Shown here piece by piece: positions 2,028 through 7,284 of a stretch of DNA of 43,389 nt; position 1 is the first letter of the stretch; every line of letters starts with the position of its first letter. The position numbers were made by a program, and so were the translations under genes. The notes beneath the pieces are model-generated. The model was given only the letters and a program-made list of their open reading frames with translations, was not told the origin of the DNA and ran no database searches. The stretch comes from Hansschlegelia zhihuaiae (GTDB taxonomy: Bacteria; Pseudomonadota; Alphaproteobacteria; Rhizobiales; Methylopilaceae): assembly GCF_004103825.1 (NCBI RefSeq), contig NZ_RYFI01000008.1:67115-110503 (forward strand), written 5' to 3'.

Positions 2028-2118
2028 AGACACCGCTTAGGTTGCAAAATTCTAGCGTACGCCTCATTCTAGAAGGGTCAAAAATACAATCTGAATAGCA
2101 TGGTGGGGAGGGCGCTAA

Positions 2119-3042
2119 ATGAAAGTCGTATCCGTCATCAACTATAAAGGCGGCGTTGGAAAGACCACAGTAACGTGGAACATTGCAGGGGAGCTGGCTT
2201 TCAGAAATTATAAGGTTTTAGCAATAGATCTCGATCCACAGACAAACTTAACATTTTCATTCATACGGCCAGAGGATTGGCAAAAATCCTTTGCTGATAG
2301 CAAGACGATTAAACAATCGTTCGACGCACTATTGTCGAACGACGATTTTGATGTTAATAATCTTATCTATACACCCAATAGAGTTAAAGTAAAATTGAAT
2401 GGCTCTGGTAAGCTCGACATCATTAGTTCTCATTTGGGATTAATAAATGTTGATTTAGAGTTGGCGACGCTGCTATCTGGCGCAAGTTTAAAGCAATCAA
2501 AGAAAAATTTTATTAAGGTACATCGGCGACTGAGGGATAATATTCAGGATATAAATAACGATGATTATGACATTATTCTAATTGATTGTCCTCCAAATTT
2601 TAATATTGTTACAAAGACCGCGATAGTGGCGAGTGATTTTGTGTTGGTTCCCACAAGGCCAGATTTTTTGAGTACACTTGGAATTGATTACTTAATACGA
2701 AATTTGTCAGATCTGGTTAGAGATTATAATGATTACGCTAAGGAGGGTGACGATCATGTGGAGGAAATTAATCCTGCAACAATAGGTGTCGTATTTAATA
2801 TGATACAAGAGAGGTCGGGTCAGCCGATCCAAGCGCAGAACACTTACATTCAGCAGATCCGAAGGCAGAGCGGATTGTATGTGTTCGAAAGGTATATCAA
2901 GAGGAATGACACATTGTTCGCCGGTGCGCCGGAAACTGGGATACCCGTGGTTCTAAACCAGCAAAGTTCAGGAACGTATAAATCTGTAGTCAACAGTCTT
3001 GAAGATGTTGTTGATGAATTCATTGATCAAGTTGGCATATGA
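2119..3042 (+). CDS. ParA/MinD-superfamily ATPase of an AT-rich island
   Basis: This 307-residue protein has the deviant Walker A motif KGGVGKTT at residues 10-17, the A' motif DLDPQTN around 37-43 and the Walker B motif IILIDCPPN around 152-160. That is the full set for a ParA/Soj ATPase, which dimerises on ATP and typically binds DNA or membrane. No N-terminal helix-turn-helix is present, as in small type Ib and chromosomal ParA proteins. A strong GGGGAGGG ribosome site ends about seven bases before ATG. Codon use is AT-rich and unlike all neighbours, indicating recent acquisition. It is followed by one partner gene rather than a recognisable parB, and no parS-like repeats were seen. A partition, defence or regulatory role remains open. 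Confidence 0.85.
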   Translation: MKVVSVINYKGGVGKTTVTWNIAGELAFRNYKVLAIDLDPQTNLTFSFIRPEDWQKSFADSKTIKQSFDALLSNDDFDVNNLIYTPNRVKVKLNGSGKLDIISSHLGLINVDLELATLLSGASLKQSKKNFIKVHRRLRDNIQDINNDDYDIILIDCPPNFNIVTKTAIVASDFVLVPTRPDFLSTLGIDYLIRNLSDLVRDYNDYAKEGDDHVEEINPATIGVVFNMIQERSGQPIQAQNTYIQQIRRQSGLYVFERYIKRNDTLFAGAPETGIPVVLNQQSSGTYKSVVNSLEDVVDEFIDQVGI

Positions 3043-3050
3043 GGTCTGAG

Positions 3051-3491
3051 ATGGCCAACAGGTCGCAAAAATTAACACAGTTGATCAAACAAGTTGCAGA
3101 ACTAATGGAGAGCGGCTCTATCGATGATGTTGACAGTGTTAATCAGCATCTGAAGAATGTACTGAAAGAAAATAGAAAATCATTGAAAGGGCCCGGAGTG
3201 CAAGGCGGCATGCAGGCTCGCATGGACTTAGAGCAGTCGCACAAGACCACAGAACGATTGACGTCTGAGCACCTTGATCAAATCATTGAACGGTTTCGTG
3301 CATACGAAACCAGAGATGATCTTAAATTATACATAAATAAGACCGTGGAGAGAAAGGCAGAATTGGAAAGTATCGCTCGGCGATTGAGGTTGCCTATGAC
3401 GAAATCGGATGACGTTGAGGTTTTGGTGGAAAAGATTATTGATGCGACAATTGGATATAAGCTTAGGTCCCGTGCAATAAGAGGTGATTAA
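3051..3491 (+). CDS. Hypothetical partner of the ParA-like ATPase, SAP-like C-terminus
   Basis: This is a 146-residue protein from ATG 3051, chosen because GAGG lies six bases upstream; an ATG at 3039 overlaps the ATPase stop and has no ribosome site. The first ~50 residues are a charged helical segment (SQKLTQLIKQVAELMESGS). The middle is polar, and the last ~55 residues (AELESIARRLRLPMTKSDD... onward) alternate short helices in a pattern like SAP or Rho-N DNA-binding modules, ending GYKLRSRAIRG. I do not recognise the family. Tight spacing and shared AT-rich codons make it a two-gene operon with the ATPase, so it may be the adaptor that brings the ATPase to DNA. That role is inferred. Confidence 0.75.
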   Translation: MANRSQKLTQLIKQVAELMESGSIDDVDSVNQHLKNVLKENRKSLKGPGVQGGMQARMDLEQSHKTTERLTSEHLDQIIERFRAYETRDDLKLYINKTVERKAELESIARRLRLPMTKSDDVEVLVEKIIDATIGYKLRSRAIRGD

Positions 3492-3526
3492 TGTAGTTTT
3501 ATTATTCTGTATCCGTGTAAATATAT

Positions 3527-3805
3527 TTAGTCTCCTGCTATGACTAGACGGCCAAGTCTTGTGAGCTTGAAGTGCCTTCGCAAAGTGCGTGAATTGTGGC
3601 AAGCAATTGAAACAAATCGATCGGCCATTTCATTTGTGGCGCGTAATACTAAAGAATGGGGGACTCCGAAGACTTTAGAGAAGGAGCGCGTATCGCTAGC
3701 GACGCCCTCGTCGACCGCGAGCAAGATCGCGGCGTCGAGCGGGGCGAGGCCGAGGCGGACGGCGAGCGCGTCGACGCGCGCCAGGAAGGCCTCGGCCTCC
3801 GTCAC
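3527..3805 (-). CDS. Small MarR-like winged-helix protein, mosaic composition
   Basis: This 92-residue protein overlaps the stop of the upstream molybdopterin oxidoreductase by ATGA, so translation is coupled. The order LDAAILLAVDEG, then SFSKVFGVPHSLVLRATNEM, then RRHFKLTRLGR looks like a winged helix-turn-helix of MarR type without dimerisation arms. Codons 1 to about 36 use almost only G/C in third positions, as the neighbours do. From about codon 37 (near 3695) the gene switches to AT-rich codons such as TTA, GTA, AAT and TCA. The reading frame stays open and protein-like across the switch, so the gene seems to be a recombinant whose 3' part arrived with the adjacent island. It may regulate or assist the oxidoreductase. 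Confidence 0.72.
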   Translation of the reverse strand: MTEAEAFLARVDALAVRLGLAPLDAAILLAVDEGVASDTRSFSKVFGVPHSLVLRATNEMADRFVSIACHNSRTLRRHFKLTRLGRLVIAGD

Positions 3806-6096
3806 GCGGCTTCCCTCGGCCGGAAGGTCACGGGCGTCGACTTCGACAAGGGCGTGTCGGACTGCTCCCCGGCGCGCGAGAACGGCACCACGGCGTTGAG
3901 TTCGGGGTAGTAGCCGGCCACGCAGCCGCGCGGGATGTCGTAGGCGACGAGCCGGAAGTCCTCCGCCACCCGCGAGCGGCCGTCCTCATGCGTCCCGACG
4001 ACGTCGACCCGGGCGTTCGGCGCCGCGCCGATCGCCGCGATGTCGTCCGGATGCATGAACACGACGCGGCGCTCGCCATAGACGCCGCGATAGCGGTCGT
4101 CGAGGCCGTAGATCGTGGTGTTGTACTGGTCGTGGCTGCGGAAGGTCTGCAGCACGAACTCTCCGGAACGCCTGCGCGCCGCCTGGTGCTCGATCTCGAG
4201 CGGCAGGGGGGCGGCCGAGAACTCGGCGCGGCCGGACGGCGTCTCCCAGACGCGCTCGGCCGCGGCGTTGCGCAGGCGAAACCCGCGCGGCTGGCGCACG
4301 CGGACGTTGAAGTCCTCGAAGCCCGGAATGACGCGGGCGATACGGTCGCGGATCAGGTCGTGGTCCTCGGCCATCGCGGCCCAGCCGAGGCTCTTGCCGA
4401 GCGTCGCCTCCGCCATCCCCGCGATGATCGCGACCTCGGATTTGAGATGCGGCGAGGCCGGCTTGTTGATGCCGCCGGAGCCGTGGACCATCGACATCGA
4501 GTCCTCGACGGTCACGATCTGGCTCTTGCCGGCGGCGTTGCGGTCGATCTCGGTGCGGCCGAGGCAGGGCAGCAGATAGGCGACCTCGCCGACCGCCATG
4601 TGGCCGAGATTGGGCTTGGTGGCGATCTGCACGGTCAGCCGGCAGCGGCGGAGCGCTTCCGTGACCAACGCGGTGTCGGGGGTCGCGCGGGCGAAATTGC
4701 CGCCGAGCCCAATGAAGGCCTTCGACCGGCCCTCCGCCATCGCCTTGATCGCCGCCACCACGTTGTGGCCGGGGGCGCGGGGAACCGCGATGCCGAACTC
4801 CCGGTCGAGATTGTCGAGCAGCCAGGCGGGCGGGTTCTCGTTGATGCCGACCGTGCGGTCGCCCTGCACGTTGGAATGGCCGCGCACCGGGCAGAGGCCG
4901 GCGCCGGGCCGGCCGATATGGCCGCGCAGCAGCAGCAGGTTCGCGATCTCGCGCACGGTCGCGACCGAATGCTTGTGCTGGGTCACGCCCATCGCCCAGG
5001 TGGCGATGACGCGCTCGGCGCCGAGATAGATCTCGGCGAGCGCCTCGATCTCGGCGCGGTCGAGGCCCGACTGGTCCTCGATCGCGTCCCAGCCCGCCGC
5101 CTCGACCTCCGCGCGCCAGGCCTCAAGGCCGGTCGTGTGCTCGGCGATGAAGGCGTCGTCGAGCAGGCCCGGCCCGCCTTCGGCGCGGTCGGCGGCGTCG
5201 CGCGCGAACACGATTTTCGCCATGCCGCGGATCGCCGCCATGTCGCCGCCGAGTTTCGGCTGGGCGTAATGGCTCGCGACCGGGCGGGAGCCGCCGCGCA
5301 GCATCTCGATCTTGTCCTGCGGGTCGGCGAAGCGCTCCAGGCCGCGCTCGCGCACCGGATTGAGCGCCACAACCTTGGCCCCGCGCTGGGCCGCGCGGCG
5401 GAGGTCGCCCAGCATGCGCGGATGGTTGGTGGCCGGGTTCTGTCCGATCACGAAGATCGCGTCGGCGAGCTCGAAATCCTCGAGCTCGACCGTGCCCTTG
5501 CCGATGCCGATCGACTGAATGAGGCCGATGCCGCTCGCCTCGTGGCACATGTTCGAGCAGTCGGGAAAATTGTTGGTCCCGAAGGCGCGGGCGAACAGCT
5601 GGTAGAGAAAGGCTGCCTCGTTCGAGGCGCGGCCGGAGGTGTAAAACTCGGCCTCGTCGGGGCTCGAAAGCGCGTTGAGCTCGCGGCCGATCTCGGCGAA
5701 GGCCTGGTACCAGCCGACCGCGATGAACCGGTTGCTCGCCGGGTCGTAGCGCATCGGCTGGGTGAGGCGGCCGACATTCTCGAGGTCGTAGTCGGTCCAG
5801 CCTCTGAGCTCAGTCACGGTGTGGCGGGCGAAGAAGGTCGGCGCGGCGCGCTTCTCAGTCGCCTCCCAGGCGACCGCCTTCACGCCGTTCTCGCAAAACT
5901 CGAAGGAGGAGCCGTGCTCGGGATCGCCCCAGGCGCAGCCGGGGCAGTCGAAACCGTCCGGCTGGTTGGCGCTGAGCATCGCCTTCGCGCCGGCCAGCGC
6001 CGACCCGCTCGCCAGCAGATGTTTTCCGCAACTGCGAAGGGCACCCCAGCCGCCGGCGGCCTTGGATTTCTTCAGAGGCGAAGCCGCATCGCTCAT
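3802..6096 (-). CDS. FdhF/YdeP-family molybdopterin oxidoreductase
   Basis: This ~764-residue soluble enzyme is a member of the formate-dehydrogenase-like molybdopterin superfamily, closest to the YdeP subgroup. An N-terminal [4Fe-4S] motif, CPGCAW...FEFCENG, is followed by the molybdopterin core with NFPDCSNMCHEASG, where cysteine rather than selenocysteine sits at the metal site. GQNPATNHPRMLG and a C-terminal MopB-binding domain (TFRSHDQYNTTIYG) follow. No signal peptide is present, so it is cytoplasmic. YdeP proteins have been linked to acid resistance, but their substrate is unknown. ATG at 6096 (MSDAAS) is preferred; a TTG four codons earlier is also open. The downstream 92-residue gene overlaps it. 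Confidence 0.9.
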   Translation of the reverse strand: MSDAASPLKKSKAAGGWGALRSCGKHLLASGSALAGAKAMLSANQPDGFDCPGCAWGDPEHGSSFEFCENGVKAVAWEATEKRAAPTFFARHTVTELRGWTDYDLENVGRLTQPMRYDPASNRFIAVGWYQAFAEIGRELNALSSPDEAEFYTSGRASNEAAFLYQLFARAFGTNNFPDCSNMCHEASGIGLIQSIGIGKGTVELEDFELADAIFVIGQNPATNHPRMLGDLRRAAQRGAKVVALNPVRERGLERFADPQDKIEMLRGGSRPVASHYAQPKLGGDMAAIRGMAKIVFARDAADRAEGGPGLLDDAFIAEHTTGLEAWRAEVEAAGWDAIEDQSGLDRAEIEALAEIYLGAERVIATWAMGVTQHKHSVATVREIANLLLLRGHIGRPGAGLCPVRGHSNVQGDRTVGINENPPAWLLDNLDREFGIAVPRAPGHNVVAAIKAMAEGRSKAFIGLGGNFARATPDTALVTEALRRCRLTVQIATKPNLGHMAVGEVAYLLPCLGRTEIDRNAAGKSQIVTVEDSMSMVHGSGGINKPASPHLKSEVAIIAGMAEATLGKSLGWAAMAEDHDLIRDRIARVIPGFEDFNVRVRQPRGFRLRNAAAERVWETPSGRAEFSAAPLPLEIEHQAARRRSGEFVLQTFRSHDQYNTTIYGLDDRYRGVYGERRVVFMHPDDIAAIGAAPNARVDVVGTHEDGRSRVAEDFRLVAYDIPRGCVAGYYPELNAVVPFSRAGEQSDTPLSKSTPVTFRPREAA

Positions 6097-6543
6097 AGAA
6101 AATCTCAATCAACTATGGACGCGACACATGCGCCGCGACGGAAGAAAAGTGCGGTCGGAATGGCCGGCATGCAATGAAAATGAGTGATCTGCGCCGCTGA
6201 TGCAGCGATCGATTTCGCCTATTGACACTTGAAAAGTGGAATTGGATCAAGCCGAGCTTGATAAGCTATTCCGATCATTTTCTTGGCGAGAGGCTCGCTT
6301 TCGCCTTTCGATCGGCGCGGCTCGGACGGCTGCGAGTTCGAGTCTGATATCGCATTGCAGCATGGGGCCTCTGCGCATTCCGCATGACCCGGGGCCGCCT
6401 TCGTCAGGCGGCGCAAGCGTTTGGCGCCGCTTCCTTTCGCAGGCGCTCGGCTCTATAAGGCCGGCTTTCCAGACAGCGGACGTCCCGCCGCGCGCGCCGA
6501 AGCAGCGACCCGGGGGCGTCCGGAGCAGCCGGAGCCCCGCCCC
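6097..6543. other. Gene-free interval with small palindromes
   Basis: No convincing gene lies between the divergent oxidoreductase and yebC. Three inverted repeats are visible: CACTT-GAA-AAGTG at 6226-6238, AGCTT-GAT-AAGCT at 6255-6267, and a GCCGCC/GGCGGC hairpin with a 7-base loop at 6394-6412. The first two lie 129-171 bases upstream of the oxidoreductase start and could be operators. TTGACA at 6222-6227 is not followed by a good -10 box. Reading frames here are low-complexity or antisense. Confidence 0.35.
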
Positions 6544-7284
6544 GTGGCCGGACATTCGCAGTTCAAGAACATCATGCACCGCAAGGGCCGCCAGGACGCG
6601 GTCCGGGCGAAGCTCTTCTCGAAGCTCGCGCGCGAGATCACGGTGGCGGCCAAGTCCGGGATGCCGGACCCGGACATGAACCCGCGGCTGCGCCTCGCGG
6701 TGAACGCCGCCAAGGCGCAGTCCATGCCGAAGGACAACATCCAGCGCGCGATCAACAAGGCGGCGGGCGGCGACACCGAGAACTATGAGGAGGTGCGCTA
6801 CGAGGGCTACGGCCCCGGCGGCGTCGCCATCATCGTCGAGGCGCTGACCGACAACCGCAACCGCACCGCCTCGGCCGTCCGCTCCTACTTCACGAAGTCC
6901 GGCGGCGCGCTCGGCGAGACCGGCTCGGTCGGCTTCATGTTCAACCGCGTGGGCGAGATCGTCTATCCGGCGAAGGCGGGCTCCGCCGACCAGGTGCTGG
7001 AGGCCGCGATCGAGGCCGGCGCGGAAGACGTCGAGTCGTCCGAGGAAAACCACGTCGTCACCTGCGCCTTCGAGGATCTGAACGAGGTGTCGAAGGCGCT
7101 CGAGGCGTCGCTCGGCGAGGCCGAGAGCGCCAAGGCTGTCTGGCGGCCCAACGTCACGACCGCGCTCGACGAGGACAAGGCCGCATCGCTGATGAAGCTG
7201 CTCGACGCGCTCGACGAGGACGACGACGTCCAGAACGTCCACGGCAATTACGAGATCTCCGACGAGGTTATGGCGAAGCTCTGA
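6544..7284 (+). CDS. yebC: YebC/PmpR-family protein (TACO1 family)
   Basis: This 246-residue protein starts at GTG 6544 with [19 protein letters not shown], the family's near-invariant N-terminus. A GGAG lies upstream. The frame stays open further 5' but that extension is Arg/Pro-rich and not conserved in pattern. [36 protein letters not shown] and [19 protein letters not shown] are typical. YebC proteins act in the cytoplasm as DNA-binding regulators or as translation factors that relieve ribosome stalling. In many alphaproteobacteria it sits upstream of ruvCAB; here the TauE-like and Hsp70-like genes come between. Confidence 0.95.

What the first reader, a model, noticed from the sequence alone, without database searches (positions are those of the whole stretch)
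2040..3695. Two-gene ParA plus SAP-like cassette in a compositional island
About 1.65 kb of AT-rich DNA interrupts a GC-rich core region. It holds exactly two genes in tight succession: a complete ParA-type ATPase and a small protein with a helical N-terminus and a SAP/Rho-N-like C-terminus. No ParB, parS, integrase or replication gene is present, so a plasmid partition remnant is not an obvious explanation. A NTPase with a DNA-binding adaptor, moved as a unit into a core locus, could be an uncharacterised defence, silencing or positioning system.
Basis: partly seen in the sequence, partly recalled or inferred. Interest (0 to 1): 0.75.

Follow-up and report, generated by a model that had tools for sequence, protein, structure and literature searches.

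The report
Widespread ParA two-gene cassette, probably defence
A pair of neighbouring genes, a ParA-type DNA-surfing motor and a small helper protein that nearly always comes with it, moves between very different microbes and in E. coli sits mostly in a known virus-defence slot of prophages, so it is probably an undescribed defence module.

Summary
Window 2119-3042 (+) encodes a complete ParA-type ATPase. 3039-3491 (+), with a likely start at 3051, encodes a 146-150 aa partner. GC is about 0.40 inside a GC-rich region.

The pair is not lineage-specific. ParA relatives (44-71% identity) lie in 80 fetched loci carrying 18 phylum labels, one archaeal. In 77 of 80 the partner lies directly downstream; two of the three exceptions are contig ends. 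Most partners match no curated family; two short Micromonospora members pass the Pfam Rho_N cut-off. No ParB, recurrent parS-like repeat or recurrent third gene was found.

The pair occurs in at least 8 of 5,426 complete E. coli genomes. Six copies lie in the P2-prophage gpA-gpQ slot, a published anti-phage hotspot; two lie beside an integrase at tRNA-Asn. A broken copy follows Qat defence genes on a Vibrio plasmid. Other copies are not visibly enriched near known defence genes.

Best reading: a mobile ParA-plus-adaptor module, most likely anti-phage or anti-mobile-element (0.58). Rivals: prophage stabilisation, positioning of an unknown cargo. A single-gene ParA-fold anti-phage protein (GiPD474) is in print; I found no report of this pair. 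No function was tested.

The parts
2119..3042 (+). ParA-type (deviant Walker A) ATPase, 307 aa
   Evidence: AAA_31 3.7e-39; 12 Walker/switch residues checked, each identical in 51 of 51 aligned rows; AlphaFold2 model pLDDT 88.6, best PDB matches ParA 8ray, Soj 2bek, McdA 6non
3039..3491 (+). small all-helical partner, 150 aa (likely start ATG 3051, 146 aa): N-terminal two-helix hairpin, poorly ordered linker (about residues 50-70), C-terminal four-helix domain ending in the family motif KIIxxTxGxRLRSxAIxG
   Evidence: ORF; alignment A1 of 57; model pLDDT 86.5; partner HMM hits directly downstream of ParA in 77 of 80 loci
2028..2118 (+). leader between the ymdB stop and parA; by eye a GGGGAGG ribosome-site-like stretch before ATG 2119 and two copies of ATTCTAG, of unknown meaning
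   Evidence: sequence read by eye; no repeat recurring across loci
2028..3526 (.). low-GC island = the inserted cassette between ymdB and a native minus-strand gene
   Evidence: composition; empty or differently filled site in same-genus genomes

Best explanation
It is a horizontally moving two-gene module made of a ParA/Soj-type ATPase and a dedicated adaptor protein, and its most likely role is to protect the host (or a resident prophage) against invading phages or other mobile DNA. Shown: the genes are linked, both look to be under purifying selection, ParA keeps the canonical Walker and switch residues that I checked, the pair is spread sporadically over many phyla, and in E. coli it occupies mostly an established anti-phage slot. 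Inferred: ATP-bound ParA dimers coat nucleoid DNA. The partner contacts ParA through its helical hairpin or its conserved Arg/Lys-rich C-terminal tail, and contacts nucleic acid or a phage-made complex through its C-terminal helix-loop-helix domain. On infection the partner is loaded on the incoming target and triggers ParA turnover, so that the target is captured, moved or kept from its replication or packaging site.
For: Pair conserved in 77 of 80 loci with 18 phylum labels. No third gene family recurs in more than 6 loci among 688 flank proteins. Cassette GC below flank GC in 65 of 77 loci, and in 29 of 29 where flank GC exceeds 0.55. Sporadic: 1 of 385 class genomes, the window's own, at E<=1e-40; partner profile 1 of 385. 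E. coli: 8 of 5,426 genomes; 6 of 8 between the replication endonuclease and portal genes of P2-type prophages, the hotspot described in PMC9122126 (section 10 read) and PMC9519451 (passages). The same slot in 11 other E. coli prophages that I picked from 40 listed rows holds, among others, retron Ec67, another reverse transcriptase, two DUF262 genes and a PIN-domain gene. A viral contig (L124) carries the pair beside P2 portal/terminase genes; so does L126, but that one is nearly identical to the E. coli copies and its ParA is broken. A broken copy starts 61 bases after qatD. ParA dN/dS 0.016 and partner 0.075 for E. coli against Rahnella (rough). A ParA-fold prophage protein, GiPD474, has anti-phage activity (PMC12724215; abstract and sections 8, 10, 12 read).
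Against: No phage assay of this pair is known to me. PADLOC scans of the nearest flank genes (136 proteins) show no clear excess of plausible defence genes over outer flank genes (104 proteins); only 25 of 204 near-set families were displayed. ParA is more conserved (mean pairwise identity 0.55 against 0.26 for the partner) than I would expect of a phage-facing component. About a quarter of P2-like phages carry a putative partition system in the same slot (PMC9122126), so the slot alone does not prove defence. Several of the 11 other slots hold genes of unknown role. The partner's nucleic-acid-binding role rests on weak Rho_N/SAP similarity.
Confidence: 0.58

Rival explanations
1. Stability or partition module of mobile elements: the pair helps an excised prophage or integrative element to segregate, the partner acting as an unusual centromere-binding protein.
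For: ParA fold closest to ParA 8ray and Soj; the E. coli copies lie in prophages or beside an integrase, in one case in an element with a MobQ relaxase; P2-like phages often carry a putative partition system in the same slot; 5 of 77 upstream stretches hold an inverted repeat with arms of 10 or more bases.
Against: Partner has no ParB or other centromere-binding family and is modelled as all helix, without a strand. No repeat is shared between loci. No plasmid among 72,556 carries the family at E<=1e-30; the one plasmid copy seen is broken. No integrase or replication gene family recurs in more than 3 loci of the flank set.
Confidence: 0.15
2. Nucleoid-based positioning system in the manner of McdAB: the partner links ParA to a cellular cargo encoded elsewhere; no defence role.
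For: ParA plus a small adaptor is the layout of McdAB-type systems (recalled; abstract starts listed); McdA is among the structural neighbours; Walker and switch residues all kept; ParA very conserved.
Against: No recurrent cargo gene beside it. Sporadic presence over 18 phylum labels, in 8 of 5,426 E. coli and in 1 of 385 class genomes does not fit service to a core cargo.
Confidence: 0.15
3. Xenogeneic silencer or transcription regulator: ParA spreads on DNA and the SAP-like partner targets AT-rich or foreign DNA.
For: AT-rich cassette; Rho_N/SAP-like domain in two members; nonspecific DNA binding is usual for ParA proteins (recalled).
Against: No known silencer domain. AT-rich composition is common to newly gained genes (recalled). 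No shared sequence upstream.
Confidence: 0.05

Closest known systems
GiPD474, Gifsy-1 prophage anti-phage protein (PMC12724215; abstract and sections 8, 10, 12 read)
   Same: AAA_31 / ParA-MinD-fold ATPase, prophage-borne, spread by transfer; reported by its authors to restrict tailed phages in Salmonella and E. coli
   Different: single gene, Walker motif at residues 29-34 and an extra domain of unknown function, beside CII/Cro/repressor genes; no partner is mentioned in the sections read. I did not obtain its sequence, so common ancestry beyond the ATPase fold was not tested. A solitary immunity-region ParA of phage ST160 (357 aa) is only 25% identical to the window ParA over 257 aligned columns.
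ParABS chromosome/plasmid partition (Soj-Spo0J, TP228 ParF-ParG, pNOB8 ParA)
   Same: ParA ATPase with signature lysine and switch residues; best PDB matches include 8ray ParA and Soj 2bek
   Different: no ParB/ParG relative found, no recurrent repeats, not on plasmids at E<=1e-30
McdAB carboxysome positioning
   Same: ParA-type ATPase plus a small adaptor gene beside it (layout of McdAB recalled)
   Different: no cargo gene beside it and a sporadic multi-phylum spread
Rho N-terminal / SAP helix-loop-helix domains (Pfam PF07498, PF02037)
   Same: two Micromonospora partners pass the Rho_N cut-off, one of them also the SAP cut-off
   Different: 0 of 57 aligned partners hit either family at E<=0.01; hhalign against 28 Rho N-termini of the window's order was not significant (probability 1.8%)
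P2 gpA-gpQ hotspot anti-phage systems (old/tin, retrons and others; PMC9122126, PMC9519451)
   Same: same prophage slot, short autonomous cassette
   Different: in the other loci no phage gene family recurs in more than 3; activity not shown

Membership tests
ParABS partition system | ParA ATPase with deviant Walker A and signature lysine | tested here: met
   K10, G11, G12, G14, K15, T16, D37, D39, Q41, D156, P158, P159 identical in 51 of 51 rows
ParABS partition system | ParB-type CTPase or small ribbon-helix-helix centromere-binding partner | tested here: not met
   no family above its cut-off for the window partner; none of the 10 families hit by any of 57 members is ParB-like; model all helical, no strand
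ParABS partition system | parS-like repeats next to the genes | tested here: inconclusive
   77 pairs (window, 2 E. coli, 74 loci): 4 or more copies of any 9-mer in 1; longest inverted-repeat arm 6.7 on average against 5.9 after shuffling, with arms of 10-16 in 5; no 8-mer in more than 9. Shuffles kept base composition only; lone sites could be missed.
ParABS partition system | carried by an autonomous replicon | tested here: not met
   0 of 72,556 plasmid records at E<=1e-30; one broken copy on pMBL287; 8 of 8 E. coli copies chromosomal
McdAB-type positioning system | ParA-type ATPase with an adjacent small adaptor | tested here: met
   77 of 80 loci
McdAB-type positioning system | linked cargo gene | tested here: not met
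   largest recurrent flank cluster in 6 loci, ABC-transporter-like by eye, at varied distances
Anti-phage defence system | located in a known defence hotspot | tested here: met
   6 of 8 E. coli copies in the P2 gpA-gpQ slot (hotspot)
Anti-phage defence system | enriched beside known defence genes genome-wide | tested here: inconclusive
   nearest flanks (136 proteins) against outer flanks (104): no clear excess; only the top 25 of 204 near-set families were shown
Anti-phage defence system | reduces phage plating when expressed | not testable with these tools
   needs an experiment
GiPD474-type protein | single ParA-fold gene acting alone | tested here: not met
   partner present in 77 of 80 loci
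GiPD474-type protein | sequence membership | not tested
   I did not obtain the GiPD474 sequence
Rho_N/SAP domain (partner C-terminus) | match above the Pfam gathering score | tested here: inconclusive
   met in 2 of 10 partners scanned (both Micromonospora); 0 of 57; hhalign not significant

The most novel reading that the evidence does not exclude
A two-component immune system, spread over bacteria and at least one archaeon, that uses a ParA motor gliding on the nucleoid and a loading adaptor to find, capture or relocate invading DNA or phage assemblies: spatial immunity rather than cutting, signalling or cell suicide.
Probability: 0.3. Interest if true: 0.9.

Novelty: new variant of a known kind. 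Interest (0 to 1): 0.7.

Why it matters
ParA ATPases are known for segregating plasmids, chromosomes and organelles. A very conserved, mobile ParA-plus-adaptor pair with no ParB, no recurrent centromere-like repeat and no fixed cargo, found under 18 phylum labels and in an established prophage defence slot of E. coli, suggests either a new anti-phage mechanism based on positioning or a new class of cargo system. Because natural E. coli and Rahnella copies exist, it can be tested directly in laboratory strains. With GiPD474 it would point to ParA-fold ATPases as a wider class of defence proteins.

Tried and rejected
Partner homologues by direct search failed: 150 relatives gave only the window plus one weak hit at E 0.004 inside a 590-aa frame, taken as chance; genome contigs, plasmids and phages gave none. 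The way in was the conserved ParA.

Fold searches of the partner: no PDB match at E<=0.001 and none in BFVD (best a 65-aa phage protein, E 0.024). The PDB sequence profile search gave only marginal hits (best E 0.013). The second aligner library was not available.

PADLOC PDC-M28B hits to ParA (51 of 51) were rejected: in the window protein the matched stretch is residues 6-43, around the Walker A motif. PADLOC flank hits named GajB and DndA/SspA look like housekeeping UvrD and IscS (my reading of flank sequences) and were not counted as defence; a hit to IetA and hits of two proteins to mads_8 were left undecided.

Direct link to Rho N-termini by hhalign: probability 1.8%; the Rho profile was shallow and 28 of 30 fetched loci gave a usable N-terminus.

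Weaker plasmid matches exist: 571 plasmid records match the window ParA at E<=1e-10, all under 60% identity, taken as ordinary ParA proteins except pMBL287. A 107-base match to an Acinetobacter plasmid ATPase gene was not followed up. Absence from plasmids is not used as evidence for an anti-plasmid role, since the collection is small for so rare a gene.

Rows dropped: L015 and L062 (near copies) from the tree, the co-divergence test and the flank scans; L072 (no partner) from partner analyses; L053 and L068 (contig ends) lack a partner. A1 uses 57 and A2 51 rows.

Full report
What is there. The window holds 5-formyltetrahydrofolate cyclo-ligase (289-894), YmdB (1203-2027), then the island, then a native 92-aa gene on the minus strand (3527-3805), an FdhF/YdeP oxidoreductase (3802-6108, minus) and YebC, whose frame ends at 7284. 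The island holds two genes: ParA (2119-3042) and a partner (3039-3491), overlapping as ATGA. The invariant methionine of the alignment (M5) suggests that the partner starts at 3051. GC is 0.36-0.44 inside and 0.64-0.74 in most windows outside.

Where it ends. All 12 other same-genus genomes searched have the small minus-strand gene, and none of the 149 other relatives searched has a convincing partner. In the six same-genus genomes read at the site, ymdB and that gene are separated by other small ORFs or almost nothing. In three others ymdB is next to yebC and the oxidoreductase lies elsewhere. So the cassette went into an already variable gap, and its right end is near 3491-3526, not 3695.

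The family. A scan of genomes of 84,980 species with the ParA found 138 relatives by an exact-peptide prefilter; the best 80 were kept (44-71% identity, nearly all full length). In 77 of 80 a partner profile hits directly downstream on the same strand. The profile was built from 57 rows that include most of these loci. Hits not used in the profile include 13 long Bacillota partners, the Lutibacter, Nostoc and Micromonospora partners, the E. coli partners and the four viral-contig partners. L053 and L068 end at a contig edge; L072 truly lacks a partner. With the first possible start codon, the partner begins between 56 bases before and 21 bases after the ParA stop. Partners are about 125-165 aa in most loci. 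In 15 loci (13 Bacillota, Lutibacter, Nostoc) they are 186-246 aa and the profile matches two or three stretches in each. They are short in one Bacteroidales genome (89 aa) and in Micromonospora (76-86 aa), where essentially only the C-terminal domain remains.

Spread. The ParA tree of 79 rows (quick method) carries 18 phylum labels, including the archaeon Methanolobus. It needs 27 phylum changes where 17 is the minimum and shuffled labels need 47.5. The label is thus partly clustered, yet transfer or repeated loss across phyla is needed; some loci are metagenome bins. The window ParA groups with Mesorhizobium, Skermanella and Jiella (SH-aLRT 99), and its own genus lacks the partner in the 12 other genomes searched. 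In the class sample 1 of 385 genomes (the window's own) has the ParA at E<=1e-40 and 1 of 385 has the partner profile. Cassette GC is lower than flank GC in 65 of 77 loci and in 29 of 29 loci with flank GC above 0.55 (median difference 0.126).

Coupling and selection. ParA and partner distances correlate over 60 gene pairs (Spearman 0.40, 0 of 999 permutations as high); mean pairwise identity is 0.55 for ParA and 0.26 for the partner. For E. coli against Rahnella, dN/dS is 0.016 for ParA and 0.075 for the partner; partner values in two other comparisons are 0.114 and 0.079. dS is high everywhere (1.7 or more, and saturated for ParA in those two), so these values are rough, but they point to purifying selection on both.

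The proteins. ParA: 12 Walker and switch residues checked are identical in 51 of 51 rows. The model (pLDDT 88.6) matches ParA 8ray, Soj and McdA best. Partner: the model (pLDDT 86.5) has a helix pair (2-49), a poorly ordered linker (blocks 51-70 average about 52) and a confident C-terminal domain of four helices (76-148). The C-terminus carries the family motif KIIxxTxGxRLRSxAIxG. No solved structure or Pfam family fits it well. Two Micromonospora partners pass the Rho_N cut-off (1.1e-7 and 4e-7) and one also the SAP cut-off. The helix-loop-helix at 106-148 agrees with that by eye, but a profile comparison with Rho N-termini was not significant. The SAP-like label is therefore plausible, not established.

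Repeats. Over 77 pairs no 8-mer next to the genes is shared by more than 9, and only one has a 9-mer four or more times; but inverted-repeat arms are slightly longer than after shuffling (6.7 against 5.9) and reach 10-16 bases in five. A centromere-like site is thus not seen as a family feature and not fully excluded.

Surroundings. Among 688 flank proteins no gene family recurs in more than 6 loci, so nothing but the partner travels regularly with ParA. The nearest flanks are a wide mix of ordinary genes (25 of 153 families shown). PADLOC on 136 nearest flank proteins shows a few plausible defence genes (two D12-type methyltransferases, a DNA cytosine methylase profile, a DRT2 reverse transcriptase) and housekeeping look-alikes. 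104 outer flank proteins show a similar handful, including a type IV restriction enzyme and a type I restriction enzyme. Only 25 of 204 near-set families were displayed. There is no visible enrichment.

E. coli and phages. A DNA search with the Rahnella pair found it in 8 of 5,426 complete E. coli genomes, all chromosomal; more diverged copies could be missed. All eight were read: six between the replication endonuclease and portal genes of P2-family prophages, and two next to an integrase at tRNA-Asn, with a MobQ relaxase in the strain where that part was read. The P2 portal gene itself matches in 1,264 genomes, so the pair is rare in that slot. Eleven other slots, picked by me from 40 listed rows, hold other cassettes, among them retron Ec67, a reverse transcriptase, DUF262 and PIN genes, and several genes of unknown role. 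In strain 17MR471 the pair sits where CFT073 has a TIGR02391 gene, after the same two upstream proteins. Two IMG/VR contigs (L124, L126) show the P2 neighbourhood; L126 is nearly identical to the E. coli copies and its ParA is broken. Four family members with partner were found among 67 ParA relatives in viral contigs. No phage record matches the window ParA at E<=1e-20 and no plasmid record at E<=1e-30. A broken copy starts 61 bases after qatD on a Vibrio plasmid.

Literature. PMC9122126 (section 10 read) and PMC9519451 (passages) describe the gpA-gpQ slot as an anti-phage hotspot. The first also says that around a fourth of P2-like phages carry a putative plasmid partitioning system there, which is a serious rival reading; none of the 11 slots that I read showed one by annotation. 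Neither main text contains the word ParA. PMC12724215 (abstract and sections 8, 10, 12 read) reports GiPD474, a single ParA-fold prophage protein that restricts tailed phages by an unknown route. DefensePredictor (PMC13092281; passages only) does not mention ParA in its main text. My searches for this pair found no report of it; supplements and most subscription journals were not searchable.

Verdict. The conserved mobile pair is solid. That it is not an ordinary ParABS system is well supported. That it is a defence system is the best single reading (0.58), resting on the E. coli slot, the Qat neighbour, the mode of spread and the GiPD474 precedent, and weakened by the lack of general defence-island enrichment and the partition rival. 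The mechanism is inference from ParA biology.

Noticed in passing
window 2028-3530, and the same site in same-genus genomes (L091-L094, L099, L100): The ymdB-downstream gap is a variable spot: L100 holds what looks by eye like a cold-shock gene plus another small gene, others hold other small ORFs, L099 almost nothing.
   Followed up: partly
window 3527-3805 (-): Native 92-aa gene just before the FdhF/YdeP gene, found in 12 of 12 other same-genus genomes searched but in none of the 8 other genomes of the order; its 3' half is unusually AT-rich in the window.
   Followed up: partly
L072 6001-8100: A family ParA without its partner in a Desulfobacterales bin; the DNA after it encodes an unrelated protein and then what looks by eye like a P-loop ATPase.
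   Followed up: partly
L241 (Salmonella phage ST160) 2495-3565: A solitary 357-aa ParA-like gene in the immunity region near CII, Cro and repressor genes, with no partner; its place resembles that described for GiPD474.
   Followed up: partly
L195 536-2212: The E. coli AF16 P2 prophage that carries the pair also has a SNIPE-associated-domain gene between integrase and repressor, so one prophage holds two candidate defence loci.
   Followed up: no
L190 7923-8428: The broken ParA copy on Vibrio plasmid pMBL287 lies directly after the Qat defence genes and is followed by an unrelated gene instead of a partner.
   Followed up: yes
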